The notes under the pieces are model-generated. The model was not told the origin of the DNA, made no database searches, and saw only the letters and a program-made list of their open reading frames with translations. 43,143 bases of DNA from Saprospiraceae bacterium (GTDB taxonomy: Bacteria > Bacteroidota > Bacteroidia > Chitinophagales > Saprospiraceae): contig JAHDCQ010000008.1 in NCBI GenBank assembly GCA_020629845.1, positions 1 through 43,143 on the forward strand. Direction: 5' to 3'. Every line of letters starts with the position of its first letter. Position 1 is the first letter of the stretch. The position numbers were made by a program, and so were the translations under genes. This document shows positions 207-11,699 of the stretch, one piece after another.

Positions 207-400
207 GTAACTATTTAGCAGAGGAGAGAAAAGAGACCACTTCATTGAGAGAAGAGAGATGAACAGATACAAATGCGTTTCACGCTGAGTTGAAAACACA
301 AACTTTGGCAAAAGTATTGGAAAAAGGAAAGTTATAGCATTGTAATCTCTTTTCTCTCAGTCCAAAAGGACGGTCTCTCTTCTCTCTTCTAAATAGTTAC
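207..400. mobile_element. 194-bp miniature inverted-repeat element with 8-bp target duplication (family A, copy 1)
   Basis: The ends GTAACTATTTAG (207-218) and CTAAATAGTTAC (389-400) are perfect inverted repeats. They continue inward as an imperfect, purine-rich repeat of about 30 bp (AGAG/AGAGACC). The element is flanked on both sides by TTTAAAAC (199-206 and 401-408), an exact 8-bp target site duplication. It has no coding capacity. An inner GTCCAAAAGGAC hairpin lies near the right end. A second copy of the family occurs at 5578-5910. The right end is 19 bp from the FTCD start codon, so the element probably contains or displaced that promoter. The transposase family is not assigned. Confidence 0.85.
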
Positions 401-4310: not shown

Positions 4311-4469
4311 ATGTTATTGCCAATTCTCGAAAAACAATTAAGTAATAAGCAAGAGGAACTTACTTCGCTCTACGAGCAAAGGGGCAATACCTCTATAGGG
4401 ACGGTTGGGGATTATGAGAATGAGATAAAAAAATCCCTCTGTAAATTTCTAGCTGATAGTTTGGGCTGA
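4311..4469 (+). pseudogene. Truncated paralogue of the upstream EAD-like gene (N-terminal part only)
   Basis: An ATG 2 bp after the previous stop opens a 52-codon frame. Its first 40 residues (LEKQLSNKQEELTSLYEQR, then GNTSIGTVGDYENEIKKS) align with residues 10-50 of the upstream protein (LKEQLANIEEQIKELYRRR). The similarity stops abruptly after IKKS. The frame then runs about ten residues into the hairpin GGGCTGAA...TTCAGCCC and ends. The linker and EAD11-like half are missing. It looks like a tandem duplicate cut off by repeat DNA. A short functional peptide cannot be excluded. Confidence 0.6.
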
Positions 4470-4485
4470 ATTTATATTCAGCCCG
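4464..4485. repeat. Short hairpin at the breakpoint of the truncated gene
   Basis: GGGCTGAAT (4464-4472) pairs with ATTCAGCCC (4476-4484). It overlaps the stop codon of the truncated EAD-like frame and lies directly beside the larger inverted repeat at 4486-4566. Confidence 0.6.
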
Positions 4486-4566
4486 TAATGTATTATCGAA
4501 ACTCTGTTTCGTCCCGCAGGTTTATAGCAAAAGCGACACTCGAAACGGAGTTTCGATAACACATTA
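4486..4566. repeat. 81-bp inverted-repeat element
   Basis: Arms of 26 bp (4486-4511 and 4541-4566; outer ends TAATGTATTATCG / CGATAACACATTA) match at 24 of 26 positions around a 29-nt centre. The arms contain TCGAAACTC. No target duplication is obvious. It lies between the truncated EAD-like gene and the 3' end of nadC and could end transcripts from both sides. Confidence 0.65.
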
Positions 4567-4645
4567 TGACTTGAATAGCCCTGTATAGTTATCGGGGCAA
4601 GCCAAGCATCAGCTAACTTTTTATAGAGGTATAAATTTTGTATTG

Positions 4646-5512
4646 CTAATCAATAATCTTCAAACTCAAATCCAGACTCACCGCAGAATGCGTAAGCGCG
4701 CCTACCGAAATGAAATTCACGCCTGTTTGCGCTACTTTCCGAACGGTGTTCAAATTGATACCGCCCGATGCTTCTACTTCATAGCGACCATTCACAATAG
4801 CTACGGCTTCTTCCATCAAGGCTAATTCAAAATTATCGAGCATGATACGCGTCACTTGCCCCGTTTCTAGTACTTCATACAGTTCTACTAGGTTTCGTAC
4901 TTCTATGGTCACATTGAGGTCGAGTCCTGATTCTTTTTGGTAAGCAGCGACTTGTTCTATTGCTTGTTTGATACTTCCGCAAGCTTCAATATGATTGTCT
5001 TTTACCATAATCCAATCATACAAACCATAGCGATAGTTCGCACAGCCACCTAGATGCACCGCCCATTTTTCCAAGAAGCGAATCAAAGGAGTCGTTTTGC
5101 GAGTATCCAATATCGTTACGGGCAAATCTTCTACTTCAAATTTATAGCGATTGCTCAAGCTGGCAATGCCACTCATGCGCTGCATGGTATTCAGGATAAG
5201 GCGTTCTACTTTGAGTAGGTTGCGGGTATTGGCTTCTACATAAAAAGCAATATCACCACGAAATACATCCTCGCCGTCTTTTTTCAAAAACTCAAATTCT
5301 ACACTATCATCTACAGCCTCGAAGACGTGTTTTGCCATTTCAATGCCTGCAATGATACCAGGTTCTTTCACCAACAATTTAGCCTTGCTTCTACTATCAG
5401 GCGGAATACAAGCTTTAGAGGTATGATCGCCTTCGCCTACGTCCTCCCGTAGCGCGCTTGCTACAAATTCTTTAATCCAATGCTTTTTGTTATCTAGATA
5501 TGCTGGCTTCAT
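4646..5512 (-). CDS. nadC: Nicotinate-nucleotide pyrophosphorylase, carboxylating (quinolinate phosphoribosyltransferase)
   Basis: The enzyme converts quinolinate and PRPP to nicotinate mononucleotide, CO2 and pyrophosphate in de novo NAD synthesis. At 288 aa it is normal length. Visible features are the N-terminal 'ALREDVGEGDHTS', the substrate-binding DTRKTTP, the 'YRYGLYDWIMVKDNHI' segment, and the C-terminal barrel end 'LDNF...VEASGGINLNTV...GVNFISVGALTHS'. A -7-like box lies 32-39 bp upstream, and a nested pair of miniature elements starts 65 bp upstream. nadA and nadB are not in the window. Confidence 0.95.
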   Translation of the reverse strand: MKPAYLDNKKHWIKEFVASALREDVGEGDHTSKACIPPDSRSKAKLLVKEPGIIAGIEMAKHVFEAVDDSVEFEFLKKDGEDVFRGDIAFYVEANTRNLLKVERLILNTMQRMSGIASLSNRYKFEVEDLPVTILDTRKTTPLIRFLEKWAVHLGGCANYRYGLYDWIMVKDNHIEACGSIKQAIEQVAAYQKESGLDLNVTIEVRNLVELYEVLETGQVTRIMLDNFELALMEEAVAIVNGRYEVEASGGINLNTVRKVAQTGVNFISVGALTHSAVSLDLSLKIID

Positions 5513-5543
5513 TGTGCAGAAAATATGTGTTTTATAAACGTTT

Positions 5544-5551
5544 CAAATTTA
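5544..5551 (-). promoter_or_regulatory. Probable -7 box of nadC
   Basis: On the minus strand this reads TAAATTTG, a full match to the Bacteroidota -7 consensus TAnnTTTG, 31 bp before the nadC ATG. No clear TTG is present at the -33 distance. The miniature element begins at 5578, about where the -33 region should end. Confidence 0.45.
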
Positions 5552-5577
5552 GGGATGCAATAATACGAAAATTGTTT

Positions 5578-5910
5578 GTAACTATTTAGTAGAGCAGAGA
5601 GGAGGTGTGTATAACAAATTGCACAATTGTATGATTTACTTCCCCACCAATGAATTGGTGGGCTAAAACTATTTCGTGATAAAATTCAGCCCACCAATTC
5701 ATTGGTGGGACGTATGTAAAAACGTAAATTTTTCAGGCGAAAAAGTGCAATTTGTTATACGCACAGAGAGGAGAGACCATTCGATTTGCTCATTGAGAAA
5801 AGAGCGACAGGATATTCCAAATACTACTAAAGAGACAGGAAAAAAATGCTTGTAACGCTCTGTTCTCTCAGTCCAAAGGACGGTCTCTGCTCTCTACTCT
5901 AAATAGTTAC
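5578..5910. mobile_element. Family A miniature element, copy 2, interrupted by a second element
   Basis: The ends GTAACTATTTAG (5578-5589) and CTAAATAGTTAC (5899-5910) are identical to those of the copy at 207-400. The right end also carries the same 'CTCAGTCCAAAGGACGGTCT' block. Removing the insert at 5605-5764 and one 9-bp duplicate restores a 164-bp element whose left arm reads AGAGAGGAGAGACCA, colinear with copy 1. The flanks AATTGTTT and AATTTGTTT are a near-match that could be a decayed target duplication. The element lies between the nadC 5' end and the uvrC 3' end. Confidence 0.8.
5605..5764. mobile_element. 160-bp miniature element nested in family A copy 2, with 9-bp target duplication
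   Basis: The terminal repeats GTGTGTATAACAAATTGCAC (5605-5624) and GTGCAATTTGTTATACGCAC (5745-5764) match at 19 of 20 positions. AGAGAGGAG flanks both sides exactly (5596-5604 and 5765-5773). Inside are two mutually inverted 20-bp copies of a near-palindrome, CCCACCAATGAATTGGTGGG at 5643-5662 and its reverse complement at 5690-5709. The transcript could therefore form either two hairpins or one long stem. There is no coding capacity. Confidence 0.85.
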
Positions 5911-5932
5911 AATTTGTTTGTTCTTTGCAGCA

Positions 5933-7741
5933 TCACATCGCTTCCTCCGAAAACCACTTTTGTATTTTCTTCGCTAAGGCTTGTCCTACTACGCTGCTAA
6001 GGCTTGCTTCGTCGGCAGCTTTCACTTTTTTTACCGAGCCAAAGGTTTGCAGTAGTTTTTCGGCAGATTTCTGTCCTACACCAGGTATATTCGTCAGCTC
6101 CGTGCCTAAAAAATTACGCGAACGCTGGTCGCGGTGAAAGGTAATAGCAAAGCGGTGCGCTTCATTGCGTGCTTGCTGAATAACTTTGAGCGATTCCGAT
6201 TTTTTATTGATGTAGAGCGGAATAGGGTCGTCGGGGAAAAAGATTTCTTCTAAGCGTTTTGCAATGCCTATCATTGTTACGCGTTCTTCTATACCGAGGA
6301 CTTTTAGACTTTTCAAAGCAGCACTCAATTGTCCTTTGCCACCATCAATGATAATGAGCTGCGGCAAAGAACGCCCTTCGCTCAAGAGGCGTTTATAGCG
6401 ACGATAAACCACCTCTTCCATAGATGCAAAATCGTTTGGGCCTTCCACGCTTTTGATATTGTAGTGCCGATAATCTTTATTGGAAGGCTTCGCATTTTTG
6501 AAGACCACACAGCTCGAAACGGGATTTGAGCCTTGCAAATTGGAGTTATCGAAACACTCGATATGGATAGGCAATTCCGACATTTGCAAATCCTCCTTCA
6601 TAGTGCGAAGAATACGCTCGGTAGAGGTTTGTTTTTTGACTTTGTTGATTTCCTGTTTTTGTTTTTGGCGCAAAAAATACTGTACATTTTTATCTGATAA
6701 TTTTATCAACTTGGCTTTTTCGCCGCGCTGTGGTACAAATACGGTGGCTTCTACCGTAGGCAATTGCAACTCAAATGGCACGATGATTTCGGTAGCGGTA
6801 CTGCCAAATTTTTCTCGGATTTGCGGAATCACAAACTCCAATAATTCTTGTTCGTCCTCATCTAAGTTTTTGACCACTTCTTGGGTGTAGGCGTTTATAA
6901 TCGCGCCTTCCATCACTTGTAGGTAGTTGATGTAAGCGTTCTTTTCATCGCTGGCAATAGTGAATACATCCACTTCATCTACCGACATCGCCACTACTTG
7001 CGATTTGCTTTGATAGCCCTCAAAAGCAGCCAGTTTTTCCTTCAGTTGTTGCGCAGCTTCAAACTCCATGTTTTCGGCATGTTGGCGCATTTTTTCTTTA
7101 AAATGCCGTACCACCAAACCATATCTGCCTTTTAGGATATTTCGGATTTGTTCTATTTTTTCATTGTAGGCTTCCTCGCTTTCTAAGCCTTCGCACGCGC
7201 CTTTGCAGTTTTTAATATGATACTCTAGGCACACTTTGAACTTTCCTGCTTTAATATTAGTTTCGGATAGATTATGAATACAATTGCGTAGTGGAAATAG
7301 GGTTTTTATCAGGTCTAAAATTTGTGATAATCGTTTTTTGGAGGTGTAGGGGCCAAAGTAAATTGAGTCATCTTTCACATAACGACGAGTGATGAAGACA
7401 CGCGGAAACCGCTCTTTCTTAATACAGATATAACTATACGATTTATCATCGCGCAGCATGACATTATAGCGCGGCATGAATTGCTTAATCAGCGTGTTTT
7501 CGAGCAGCAATGCGTCTTGTTCCGTTTCTACTATCGTGTATTCGATATGGTCGGCATTCCGTACCAAGCTTCGCACTTTGTTGCGCTTATCTTTTTGACT
7601 CCCAAAATAACTCGACAAGCGATTTTTTAGACTTTTTGCTTTGCCCACATACAAGACCGTCCCCTCCGCATTGATGAAGCGATAAACGCCTGGCTGCTTG
7701 GGTAAGCTTGGCGCGAGTTGTTTATAATCGTCGTTTGTCAT
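5933..7741 (-). CDS. uvrC: UvrABC excinuclease subunit C
   Basis: The protein makes both incisions around bulky lesions in nucleotide excision repair. The frame gives 602 aa from the ATG at 7741 (MTNDDYKQL); the TTG 21 bp upstream would overlap the neighbouring gene. Domains in order: GIY-YIG nuclease (about 10-95, 'GVYRF...YVGKAKSLKNRLSSYF'), a Cys-containing middle region, UVR motif (about 195-235), the RNase H-like UvrC domain with 'HIECFDNSNLQGSNPV' and 'IIDGGKGQL', and a C-terminal helix-hairpin-helix pair ('LTNIPGVGQKSAEKLL'). It starts 14 bp after the M15 peptidase stop, so the two are probably co-transcribed. Confidence 0.97.
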   Translation of the reverse strand: MTNDDYKQLAPSLPKQPGVYRFINAEGTVLYVGKAKSLKNRLSSYFGSQKDKRNKVRSLVRNADHIEYTIVETEQDALLLENTLIKQFMPRYNVMLRDDKSYSYICIKKERFPRVFITRRYVKDDSIYFGPYTSKKRLSQILDLIKTLFPLRNCIHNLSETNIKAGKFKVCLEYHIKNCKGACEGLESEEAYNEKIEQIRNILKGRYGLVVRHFKEKMRQHAENMEFEAAQQLKEKLAAFEGYQSKSQVVAMSVDEVDVFTIASDEKNAYINYLQVMEGAIINAYTQEVVKNLDEDEQELLEFVIPQIREKFGSTATEIIVPFELQLPTVEATVFVPQRGEKAKLIKLSDKNVQYFLRQKQKQEINKVKKQTSTERILRTMKEDLQMSELPIHIECFDNSNLQGSNPVSSCVVFKNAKPSNKDYRHYNIKSVEGPNDFASMEEVVYRRYKRLLSEGRSLPQLIIIDGGKGQLSAALKSLKVLGIEERVTMIGIAKRLEEIFFPDDPIPLYINKKSESLKVIQQARNEAHRFAITFHRDQRSRNFLGTELTNIPGVGQKSAEKLLQTFGSVKKVKAADEASLSSVVGQALAKKIQKWFSEEAM

Positions 7742-7755
7742 ATTCACTATATAAA

Positions 7756-8193
7756 TCACCAATCGGCATTCCTGCCCCGCGTATCGAGATGCACATAAGA
7801 ACTATACACACCGATACCTCCTCTAAAACGCCCTTCAGCGCGCATAGTTTTCAGAATGGCTGCCCAATCGGAAGGTGCGCTATGGTTGCGTACTACAAAA
7901 TCAACGGCATTGAAAAGCACGTGCTTACTTTTGGTTTTGCCCCCCACAATGCGATTGTAAGTTGGCGAACGATAGACACTCGTTAGAATAATTGGCGCAC
8001 CCAAGTTGTGACGCAGTTCATCCAACACGCGAATAGTTGGGATAATATTTTCCCAGATTTCCTCAGGTGGGTTCGTATTTTTACCATAAGCTCTGCTATG
8101 CCGATTATTGTGCATGTCGCCTTTGAACAAGAGTTCATGCGGTTTGAAATAGCGAAAGCCTTGTGCCTCTATGAGGCGGTAGAATCGTTCCAT
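7756..8193 (-). CDS. Peptidase M15-family D-Ala-D-Ala carboxypeptidase-like protein
   Basis: The protein has 145 aa. The zinc-site pattern 'SKHVLFNAVDF' (SxH...D) and the later 'VHLDTRG' fit the M15 fold used for peptidoglycan cross-link hydrolysis, as in VanY, phage endolysins and M15A proteins. No signal peptide is visible, so it may act inside the cell, be released by lysis, or be misassigned to an envelope role. A perfect -7 box lies only 5 bp upstream of the ATG, suggesting a leaderless or near-leaderless mRNA. It precedes uvrC in the same direction. Confidence 0.8.
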   Translation of the reverse strand: MERFYRLIEAQGFRYFKPHELLFKGDMHNNRHSRAYGKNTNPPEEIWENIIPTIRVLDELRHNLGAPIILTSVYRSPTYNRIVGGKTKSKHVLFNAVDFVVRNHSAPSDWAAILKTMRAEGRFRGGIGVYSSYVHLDTRGRNADW

Positions 8194-8330: not shown

Positions 8331-11300
8331 TTAATTTACAGTTATCATTGTTTCCACCATAGCACCGAGGTGATTGCGGTGGCGTATGGATACATAATAA
8401 TTGCCCGTGGAGAGTCCATCAAAAATCAAAAATGGACTTCCTTTTTCGTCCACAATATCGCCATCGCGCTGTATAAGGCATGGGCGAGTAGCACTAATAG
8501 TATTCGGTGGGTTTGCATCGCGGATTTCTACTAGTACCCAATCCACTATGGCATCATTGCCAGTAATGCTCAATAAATTGGGGTCAGCAATAACTATTCC
8601 TCCAGAAGCATCAGGTATTAAGCCTGCTTGTCGCAGATCATCATTCATTAAGCCTGTGCCTGTATCGTAGGGACCGCCTAGCATTGCTTTGAGACAGAGT
8701 TCTAAAGAGCAAGCACCAGTACCACTACAAATGTCGTAGTAACCGTTATTAGGCAAATCTGCATTACTCCTAAATGAATAATTAATACCACAAAGGTTCG
8801 CTAAACTACTAGGGTAACAGCCTGATAATTGGTTATTATTTAAATTAAGTATATTTAAATTATTCAAGTTACCGATTTCATAAGGAATACTACCCCATAA
8901 TAGGTTGTTTGCTAAATTGAGTGTCTCTAGATTAGCCAAGTTCGCTATAGCAGGGGATATATTACCTATCAAATTATTGCGTTGTAAGCTAAGTGTTTTT
9001 AAGTTGGATAAAGCATATAATTCTGCAGGTATAGTACCATATAACTCATTAGAGTTTAGAAGGAGATACTCTAAATTACTAAGATTTCCTAATTCGGGAG
9101 GTATACTGCCTGTTATTTGAGTGCCTTGAATAGACAATAATCTTAAATTATTAAGATTTCCAAATTCAGGAGGTATGCTACCTGATACTTGAGTAGCAGA
9201 AATAGTTAATGATTCTAAATTGCTAAGATTGGCTAATTCGATTGGAATTGTTCCAGTAATTTCTGGACTAACAATAAATAGCTCTTTCAATAAGCTAAGA
9301 TTTCCTAATTCGGGCGGAATAATACCACCTAGGGTAATTCCATAAAGGCGAAGTATAGTTAATTGACTTAAATTTCCAAGTTCCGATGGAATACTCCCTG
9401 AAAGATTATCGAAAGTCAAATCAAGTTCTTCTAATGCTGTTAGTTCTTCTAATCGGGGCGGAATTGATCCATTAAGATTATTACTCGATAAATAAAGTTT
9501 CGATACTCGTCCAGCGGCATTACAGGTAATACCAAACCAATTACATACATCGCAGTCCGTGCCTGCTGCGCCATCCACCCAGCCTGTATTATCGTTCCAG
9601 TTTTGCCCATTAGTAACATAATAGAGTTCTAGCAACGCATCATAGTCAGGGTGGCAGCCTGCTAGAGGGTACATACAAACGCCTGTGCTATTATCTATAC
9701 AAAAAGCATCAAAGTCGGGTAGACTAGGATTATTAGACAAATCAAACTCAGGTATCACCCCTCCACAGATATTGGAAAGATTGGAATGAAAACAACCATC
9801 AAGCTGATTATCATTTAGCCGAAGCGTATCTAAGCTTGTGAAATTGCCAAAAGAAGCTGGTATTGCTCCTGTCAATTGATTTTCGGCAAGCGAAAGGGTT
9901 TTCAAGGATGTTAATCCACTCAATGAAGGCGGAATAGTGCCGCTTAATTGATTGTTATTTAGTCGGATTTCTTCTAAGTCGCGTAAATCTCCTAATTCTG
10001 TAGGAATAGTGCCTGTGAGTAAGTTATTATTGAGGTGAAGCCGATATAAACGCGTATTTGCTAGGTTTGGAGGGATAAGCCCACTCAATTGATTGTTATC
10101 TAACCATAGAAGAGATAGGTTTCCTAAATTGCCTAATTCAGAAGGAATATCACCGCTTAATTGGTTTTGCGATAAAAATAAGAAAGTAAGATTAGTTAGG
10201 CTAGATAGTTCAATAGGAATGTTTCCGCTTAGTTGATTATTAGAAAGAAAAAGGGCATTTAAATAGGTAAGATTACCTATCTCAGAAGGAATATACCCAT
10301 TTAATTGGTTATTTGCAAGCGAAAGAAAAGTAACCCTGCCAATACTATTGCACAGTATTCCTTGCCAATTACACACATCACAATCGGTGCTTGCTGCGCC
10401 ATCTACCCAGCCTGTATTATTGTTCCAATTTGGGCCATCTGTAGCGTTATAGAGTGCCATGAGGGCATCATAATCAGGGTGGCAAGTAGCTGTGCAAGAG
10501 CCTAAGTTTAAGCTACAAAAACTGTCAAAATCTCCTCCATTGGGCAGACTTGGATTATTAGAAATATCTACTATTACATCGTTCGCCCTACATAAACTCA
10601 ACAGCTCATTAGGCAAGCAACCAGATAGCTGATTATTAGATAAATCTATATCATAAGGATTAGTAAGATTACCTAATTCACCAGGAATGCTGCCTGTGAG
10701 TTGATTATTGGATAAATTTAAAGCATTTAAATTAACTAAATTACCTAGTTCAACGGGTATACTGCCACTCAATTGGTTGTGAGATAAATCCAGATAGCCT
10801 AAGCTACTCGTATTGCCTAATGCTACTGGTATATTTCCTGTGAGTTGGTTATCAAATAACGAAATTGTAACTATATTTGGTAAATTCGCTAATCCAACGG
10901 GAATTTCACCGCTCAATTGATTATGAAAAAGATAGAGGTATTGTAAGTTAGATAAATTTTCTAAAGCACTAGGAATTGTACCTGATAGTTGATTCTGGTA
11001 TAAGCTTAGGGTGGTCAAGTTTGTTAAATTTCCGAAGCTAGAAGGAATATTGCCACTTAATTGATTCCCGCTTAAGACTAAGGTCTTTAAATTGGATAAA
11101 TTACTTATTTCAGTAGGAATAGAACTATTTAGTTGATTACCAAAAAAATTTAGTTCTTCCAATAAGGTCAAATCTCCTATTTCCTGAGGTATTGTACCTG
11201 TCATTTGTCGAGAAGACAGAATTAATTTTGTTATTCGCCCTGAAGCATTACAACTCACTCCAATCCAATTACACACATCACAATCGGTGCCTGCTGCGCC

Positions 11301-11447
11301 ATCTATCCAGCCTGTATTATTGTTCCAATTTGGGCCATCTGTAGCATTATAAAGTGCCATGAGGGCATCGTAATCAGGGTGGCAGGGCGTTTGGGTAAAG
11401 CCCGTATAGGGCAAAAGTGAAAGGATTACAAAAAGCAAATGTTTCAT
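8331..11447 (-). CDS. Secreted three-module leucine-rich repeat protein
   Basis: The protein has 1038 aa; the ATG at 11447 opens a signal peptide (MKHLLFVILSLLPYTGFTQ). Three modules each begin with a plant-type LRR cap (CHPDYDAL...GPNWNNNTGW...DCDVCNW, starting near residues 22, 322 and 600). They continue with 23-24-residue repeats of the 'L.G.IP.ELGNL..L..L.L..N.L' type, and modules 1 and 2 close with a Cys-containing LRR end. The last 125 residues form a different module (MNDDLRQAGLIP, GNDAIVDWVLVEIRD, QRDGDIVD, HRNHLGAM) also found in two other proteins here. There is no canonical type IX sorting domain. It is probably an extracellular binding or adhesion protein; the ligand is unknown. 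Confidence 0.88.
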   Translation of the reverse strand: MKHLLFVILSLLPYTGFTQTPCHPDYDALMALYNATDGPNWNNNTGWIDGAAGTDCDVCNWIGVSCNASGRITKLILSSRQMTGTIPQEIGDLTLLEELNFFGNQLNSSIPTEISNLSNLKTLVLSGNQLSGNIPSSFGNLTNLTTLSLYQNQLSGTIPSALENLSNLQYLYLFHNQLSGEIPVGLANLPNIVTISLFDNQLTGNIPVALGNTSSLGYLDLSHNQLSGSIPVELGNLVNLNALNLSNNQLTGSIPGELGNLTNPYDIDLSNNQLSGCLPNELLSLCRANDVIVDISNNPSLPNGGDFDSFCSLNLGSCTATCHPDYDALMALYNATDGPNWNNNTGWVDGAASTDCDVCNWQGILCNSIGRVTFLSLANNQLNGYIPSEIGNLTYLNALFLSNNQLSGNIPIELSSLTNLTFLFLSQNQLSGDIPSELGNLGNLSLLWLDNNQLSGLIPPNLANTRLYRLHLNNNLLTGTIPTELGDLRDLEEIRLNNNQLSGTIPPSLSGLTSLKTLSLAENQLTGAIPASFGNFTSLDTLRLNDNQLDGCFHSNLSNICGGVIPEFDLSNNPSLPDFDAFCIDNSTGVCMYPLAGCHPDYDALLELYYVTNGQNWNDNTGWVDGAAGTDCDVCNWFGITCNAAGRVSKLYLSSNNLNGSIPPRLEELTALEELDLTFDNLSGSIPSELGNLSQLTILRLYGITLGGIIPPELGNLSLLKELFIVSPEITGTIPIELANLSNLESLTISATQVSGSIPPEFGNLNNLRLLSIQGTQITGSIPPELGNLSNLEYLLLNSNELYGTIPAELYALSNLKTLSLQRNNLIGNISPAIANLANLETLNLANNLLWGSIPYEIGNLNNLNILNLNNNQLSGCYPSSLANLCGINYSFRSNADLPNNGYYDICSGTGACSLELCLKAMLGGPYDTGTGLMNDDLRQAGLIPDASGGIVIADPNLLSITGNDAIVDWVLVEIRDANPPNTISATRPCLIQRDGDIVDEKGSPFLIFDGLSTGNYYVSIRHRNHLGAMVETMITVN

Positions 11448-11699
11448 GATAGTGGTAGTGTTGCAATGGTTTACAAAAAAGTGGATGTACAAGCTAGAAT
11501 AAAAGATGTAAATTAATACAATATCTTCTCTTTATTAAGCTTAAATAGGAAGAAACGTGACGAAAATAATGGTACTTTTTGCTTCGATATACATGTCTTA
11601 CTGAGTACTTAAGAATGCGTAAACTTAAGCCAATTCTTAGACATGGACAATTTTTAGGTGTTAAAACGCATGAACGGCTGAGTTGAAGCGACAAACGGC

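What the first reader, a model, noticed from the sequence alone, without database searches (positions are those of the whole stretch)
5578..5910. Nested insertion: a 160-bp element inside a second family A element, with 9-bp duplication
Both sets of ends and the AGAGAGGAG duplication around the inner element can be read directly. Excising the insert restores a family A element colinear with copy 1. This gives a relative order of two transposition events and proves that the inner element moved by transposition. Different duplication lengths (8 and 9 bp) imply two different transposases acting in trans.
Basis: seen in the sequence. Interest (0 to 1): 0.68.

Follow-up and report, generated by a model that had tools for sequence, protein, structure and literature searches.

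The report
One mini-transposon nested inside another
A short gene-less mobile element jumped into an older gene-less mobile element of a different family in this Saprospiraceae-type bacterium; both families occur in dozens of separate copies, and their likely helper enzymes are of known kinds (ISKra4-like and IS66-like), so the nest is real but of an ordinary kind.

Summary
Inner element B (5605-5764, 160 bp) has 20-bp inverted ends (19/20) and a perfect 9-bp duplication AGAGAGGAG. It splits outer element A (5578-5910). Without B and one duplication, A is a 164-bp element 93% identical to an un-nested genomic copy.

Both are multicopy, gene-less mini-transposons (MITEs). The genome has about 40 B and 65-70 A copies. 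I found 32 distinct perfect 9-bp duplications for B (own genome plus relatives) and 21 distinct perfect 8-bp ones for A. Only two B-in-A nests were found here, plus one in another Saprospiraceae genome, so the pair is not a fixed unit.

B's helper is found in relatives: 1.3-1.5 kb insertion sequences with identical 20-bp ends, encoding an ISKra4-like (Mutator-type) transposase, apparently split by a frameshift. A's helper is inferred: GTAA ends, 8-bp duplications and end similarity to ISBst12-group IS66 elements. Neither transposase was found in this draft assembly.

Two corrections: A here belongs to a different subfamily from copy 1, and its own duplication is imperfect. Verdict: new members of known kinds; low-to-moderate interest.

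The parts
5578..5910 (.). Outer element A (333 bp with insert, 164 bp without): MITE with IS66/ISBst12-type ends
   Evidence: un-nested copies
5578..5589 (+). Left terminal repeat of A, GTAACTATTTAG
5899..5910 (-). Right terminal repeat of A, CTAAATAGTTAC
5570..5577 (.). Left flank duplication of A, AATTGTTT
   Evidence: sister species G002 reads AATTTGTTA at this site and lacks A
5911..5919 (.). Right flank duplication of A, AATTTGTTT (one T more, or one substitution)
5605..5764 (.). Inner element B (160 bp, subfamily B1; 10 bp shorter than the 170-bp genomic form)
5605..5624 (+). Left terminal repeat of B, GTGTGTATAACAAATTGCAC
5745..5764 (-). Right terminal repeat of B, GTGCGTATAACAAATTGCAC inverted
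5596..5604 (.). Left 9-bp target duplication AGAGAGGAG (belongs to A)
5765..5773 (.). Right 9-bp target duplication AGAGAGGAG
5643..5662 (.). Hairpin CCCACCAATGAATTGGTGGG inside B, first of an inverted pair
   Evidence: stand-alone copies
5690..5709 (.). Hairpin CCCACCAATTCATTGGTGGG inside B, second of the pair; terminator-like on the - strand
207..400 (.). Copy 1 of A (194-bp subfamily) with perfect 8-bp duplication TTTAAAAC at 199-206 and 401-408

Best explanation
Two unrelated gene-less mini-transposons, one inside the other, lie between uvrC and nadC. First, a copy of family A inserted in AT-rich intergenic DNA; A is most likely a non-autonomous derivative of an IS66-family, ISBst12-group element (8-bp duplications). 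Later a copy of family B inserted into A, 27 bp from A's left end, duplicating 9 bp; B is a non-autonomous relative of ISKra4-like (Mutator-superfamily, 'p-MULT 4') insertion sequences. Shown: both sets of ends, duplication lengths in many copies, un-nested copies of each, the order of the two events, and autonomous elements in relatives with B's exact ends and duplication length. Inferred: that these transposases act in trans on A and B. For A, the helper family is inferred from end sequence and duplication length only.
For: Un-nested A 92.7% identical to the emptied outer element. In the search with the whole nest, solo A copies such as G000:C164 match both sides of the insertion, overlapping by about the length of the duplication. 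About 40 solo B copies with 9-bp duplications and about 65-70 A copies with 8-bp duplications. Autonomous partner of B: L124 (1282 bp, 9-bp duplication), L142/L197 (1530 bp, 9-bp duplication) and L123 (1309 bp), identical 20-bp ends, ORF2 hits ISKra4 family at E 1e-48 to 1e-54. A -1 shift at A8G or A9G joins ORF1 and ORF2 in L124 and L123 and extends the match towards the model's N-terminus, from position 46 or 62. Group features from PMC3942029: 18-39 bp ends with a terminal C, 8-9 bp duplications, a two-ORF -1 frameshift in the ISMich2 group. A: an IS66-family gene with GTAACTGGTTAGCC ends and 8-bp duplication AAAAAAAT, 1554 bp (L235); ISDge4 of the ISBst12 group has GTAACTGCTCAGCA ends and an 8-bp repeat (PMC12898284). 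Sister species G002 lacks A at the nadC flank.
Against: No ISKra4-like or IS66 transposase was found in this assembly, which is a draft of 594 contigs. Fused ISKra4-like proteins score 178-191 bits, just under the curated 205-bit cut-off. L142/L197 would need a different frame shift from L124 and L123. A's end differs from L235's at 2 of 12 bases, and no IS66 element with exactly A's end was found. The outer duplication is imperfect.
Confidence: 0.87

Rival explanations
1. A and B form one composite mobile unit that moves together, and the apparent nest is its normal structure.
For: B lies inside A in two places of this genome and in one other species.
Against: About 40 B and 65-70 A copies occur apart. 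The three nests differ in B subfamily, A subfamily and insertion point. No second composite copy was found with the whole nest as query.
Confidence: 0.02
2. B has a real preference for inserting into A, for example for its purine-rich, palindromic interior, rather than landing there by chance.
For: Two nests among about 40 B copies against 0.08 expected if insertion were random over the genome (P = 0.003). Two targets are purine-rich (AGAGAGGAG, TGAGAGAAA).
Against: If B only survives in intergenic DNA (assumed to be about 12% of the genome), 0.64 nests are expected and P = 0.13. The 32 distinct B duplications show no shared motif. The third nest is in A's terminal repeat, not its purine-rich part.
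Confidence: 0.12
3. A is not IS66-derived but is moved by a second Mutator-type transposase (IS256, ISLre2 or similar), which also make 8-9 bp duplications and have ends with a terminal C.
For: 8-bp duplications and ends starting with G also fit the Mutator group (PMC3942029). No IS66 gene was found in this genome or its three congeners.
Against: The ends match ISBst12-group elements at most positions, including the GTAA terminus.
Confidence: 0.25

Closest known systems
ISKra4-like insertion sequences (p-MULT 4; two-ORF ISMich2 group), PMC3942029
   Same: Ends within the 18-39 bp range with a terminal C, 9-bp duplications; relatives with B's exact 20-bp ends encode an ISKra4-like DDE transposase, with ORF1 and ORF2 joined by a -1 shift in L124 and L123.
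   Different: B carries no gene. The partner's fused protein is slightly below the curated ISKra4 cut-off, so it is a divergent branch. Assignment to the ISMich2 group was not tested by phylogeny.
IS66 family, ISBst12 group (e.g. ISDge4, PMC12898284; L235 in G004)
   Same: GTAA termini, similar first 12-14 bases, 8-bp duplications.
   Different: A carries no gene and differs from the known ends at 2-3 of 12-14 positions. An autonomous copy with exactly A's ends was not found.
Bacterial MITEs in general (e.g. Nezha, NEMIS, RUP, listed in PMC3733652)
   Same: Short, multicopy, gene-less, inverted ends, target duplications, strong hairpins, intergenic position.
   Different: No similarity by sequence was tested. 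The interiors here carry REP-like hairpin modules that also occur alone.

Membership tests
MITE (element B) | Short (<~500 bp), no transposase ORF, inverted ends, multicopy, target duplications | tested here: met
   160 bp, 20-bp ends, about 40 copies, 9-bp duplications
MITE (element A) | Short, no transposase ORF, inverted ends, multicopy, target duplications | tested here: met
   127-208 bp typical, 12-bp or longer ends, about 65-70 copies, 8-bp duplications
ISKra4-like derivative (element B) | Ends shared with an autonomous element of that family | tested here: met
   Identical GTGTGTATAACAAATTGCAC ends on L124, L142, L123
ISKra4-like derivative (element B) | Terminal repeats of 18-39 bp with a terminal C and 8-9 bp duplications (PMC3942029) | tested here: met
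   20 bp, ends ...CAC; 32 distinct perfect 9-bp duplications
ISKra4-like derivative (element B) | Partner transposase passes the NCBIfam ISKra4 cut-off (205 bits) | tested here: not met
   Best of its hits, but 166-185 bits for ORF2 and 178-191 bits fused
ISKra4-like derivative (element B) | Membership of the ISMich2 group by transposase phylogeny | not tested
   Only the two-ORF, -1 shift feature was seen, in two of three elements
ISKra4-like derivative (element B) | Helper transposase present in the same genome | tested here: not met
   None in the 594-contig draft
IS66/ISBst12 derivative (element A) | GTAA termini and 8-bp duplications | tested here: met
IS66/ISBst12 derivative (element A) | Ends identical to those of an autonomous IS66 element | tested here: inconclusive
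   L235 ends GTAACTGGTTAG match A at 10 of 12 bases; no exact match found
IS66/ISBst12 derivative (element A) | Helper transposase present in the same genome | tested here: not met
   No PF03050 match in G000 or its three congeners

The most novel reading that the evidence does not exclude
The interiors of both MITE families are built from exchangeable REP-like hairpin modules that also live alone in this or related genomes (CCCACC..GGTGGG pairs in B1; purine-rich GAGACC-hairpin-TGAGAG units in A). MITEs would then be vehicles that pick up and spread palindromes belonging to a third system, possibly an IS200-like tyrosine transposase, giving three layers of parasites on parasites.
Probability: 0.2. 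Interest if true: 0.45.

Novelty: new member of a known kind. Interest (0 to 1): 0.26.

Why it matters
It gives two MITE families in Saprospiraceae-type genomes that, as far as the papers searched show, are undescribed, with a clear relative order of activity. For B it links MITEs to a divergent ISKra4-like insertion sequence with the same 20-bp ends across several genera, a usable handle for finding the active helper. It does not change how transposition is understood; nested mini-transposons are expected wherever two families have both been active.

Tried and rejected
Solo B ends in this genome were checked for an adjacent transposase gene; by eye none was recognisable. IS66 was sought in this genus: none in G000 and three congeners. 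A's exact 17-base end in 398 family genomes: 38 hits here, one elsewhere, and that one is itself a 144-bp A element. A variant of A's end (GTAACTATTTAGGTCT) marks more gene-less elements in other genera but no recognisable transposase gene. PDB search with the ISKra4-like protein: nothing meaningful. Rfam: no match in 4400-6000. Triplex-repeat and GTAG/CGTC-repeat papers were checked for matching repeats; no link found. Paper search for Saprospiraceae MITEs gave one paper, not on this subject by its title and abstract (not read).

Full report
What is there. The window contains the nested structure exactly as described. B spans 5605-5764 and is flanked by AGAGAGGAG at 5596-5604 and 5765-5773; A's ends lie at 5578-5589 and 5899-5910. 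The structure folds strongly as a single strand, z = -12 against shuffles. It lies in the spacer between uvrC (5933-7762, - strand) and nadC (4646-5512, - strand), so no gene is broken (gene names recognised from the translated sequences, not searched).

Both are multicopy families. In the window's own genome (G000, 5.88 Mb, 594 contigs, 91% complete) B's 20-base end occurs 76 times with up to 3 mismatches and the reversed control 0 times. A's 17-base end occurs 139 times with up to 2 mismatches against 8 for the control. That is about 40 B and 65-70 A copies. B has two subfamilies. B1 is about 170 bp with a pair of CCCACC..GGTGGG hairpins; B2 is about 132 bp with a different interior. They share their ends and little else. 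The window copy is a B1 that has lost 10 bp.

Duplications. B makes 9-bp duplications: 32 distinct perfect examples in all loci held (own genome plus relatives), with no shared motif. A makes 8-bp duplications: 21 distinct perfect examples. The window's outer element is an exception: AATTGTTT against AATTTGTTT. The sister species G002 has the nadC flank conserved up to the insertion point, reads AATTTGTTA there, and has no A element. This fits an insertion after the split, with one later base change or one inserted T, but the far side of the site differs in G002, so it is not a clean empty site.

Order of events. Removing B and one duplication leaves a 164-bp A element 92.7% identical, end to end, to an un-nested 163-bp copy with perfect 8-bp duplications at C352:23601-23763. 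Window copy 1 (207-400) is a 194-bp member of another A subfamily, about 65% alike. A second independent nest lies across contigs C97 and C333, which overlap by 55 bases: a B2 copy inside another A, duplication TGAGAGAAA/TAAGAGAAA. A third is in another Saprospiraceae genome (L166): a 57-bp A-like element with 8-bp duplications AAATTATT and a B copy inserted in its right end. Nests are therefore repeated chance events or a mild preference. The expected number is 0.08 if insertion is random over the genome (P = 0.003 for two or more) but 0.64 (P = 0.13) if only an assumed 12% intergenic part is available. These figures rest on rounded copy numbers.

Helper of B. A scan of public genomes for B's end gave 82 stretches, nearly all labelled Saprospiraceae or related Bacteroidota. 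Three of these carry the ends 1.3-1.5 kb apart around a transposase gene: L124 (Phaeodactylibacter xiamenensis, 1282 bp, perfect 9-bp duplication), L142 (1530 bp, perfect 9-bp duplication; the same element as G004/L197) and L123 (1309 bp, no duplication). ORF2 (331 aa in L124 and L142) is 58-59% identical between L124 and the other two and is ISKra4-family by its best hit, E 1e-48 to 1e-54. A small ORF1 (67-75 aa) lies upstream in another frame. In L124 and L123 a -1 shift on A8G or A9G joins them, and the fused protein matches the ISKra4 model from position 46 (L124) or 62 (L123) instead of 114 or 121, at 178-191 bits, just under the 205-bit cut-off. L142 would need another shift, so it may be decayed or may use slippage. 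A two-ORF, -1 frameshift transposase is reported for the ISMich2 group of the same superfamily, with 18-39 bp ends and 8-9 bp duplications (PMC3942029). A tree was not built, so the group is not settled.

Helper of A. No IS66 gene was found in G000 or three congeners. In G004 an IS66-family gene (NF033517, E 4e-54, 184 bits over a cut-off of 180) sits in a 1554-bp element with GTAACTGGTTAGCC ends and an 8-bp duplication AAAAAAAT. ISDge4, an active ISBst12-group IS66 element, has ends GTGACTACTCAGCA and GTAACTGCTCAGCA and an 8-bp direct repeat (PMC12898284). A's ends, GTAACTATTTAG here and GTAACTATTCAG in G002, fit this pattern. The link is by end sequence and duplication length only. A-type ends also bound gene-less elements in other genera (L258, L260, L262).

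What is not shown. Neither helper gene is in this assembly; multicopy insertion sequences are often lost from short-read drafts (general knowledge), so absence here is weak evidence. No transposition was observed. Trans-mobilisation is the standard reading for MITEs, not a result.

Verdict. It is a textbook nested pair of MITEs with partners of known or near-known kinds. The less ordinary part is that both interiors carry hairpin modules that also occur alone, those of B with stem changes that keep the pairing. That was followed only part of the way.

Noticed in passing
5643-5662 and 5690-5709; L025, L026, L027, L029; L242:1379-1444: The CCCACC..GGTGGG hairpin pair inside B also stands alone in the genome, with paired stem changes (CCCACCGATAAATCGGTGGG, CCCACCGTTTCAACGGTGGG). 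One pair lies just upstream of an IS200-like tyrosine transposase ORF (NF033573, 83 bits).
   Followed up: partly
230-400 and 5774-5900; L183-L196: A's interior consists of purine-rich GAGACC-hairpin-TGAGAG units that occur alone in intergenic DNA of G002 and G006, with very different hairpins inside the same frame.
   Followed up: partly
4475-4577: An inverted pair of short hairpins (CGAAACTCTGTTTCG / CGAAACGGAGTTTCG) with shared flanks, another REP-like unit.
   Followed up: no
8331-11492: A 1053-aa secreted-type protein with many leucine-rich repeats coded by 72-base units.
   Followed up: no
L142:2045-3574: The 1530-bp ISKra4-like element carries roughly 250 bp more ahead of ORF1 than its relatives, GC-rich, and its two ORFs are in a different relative frame.
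   Followed up: no
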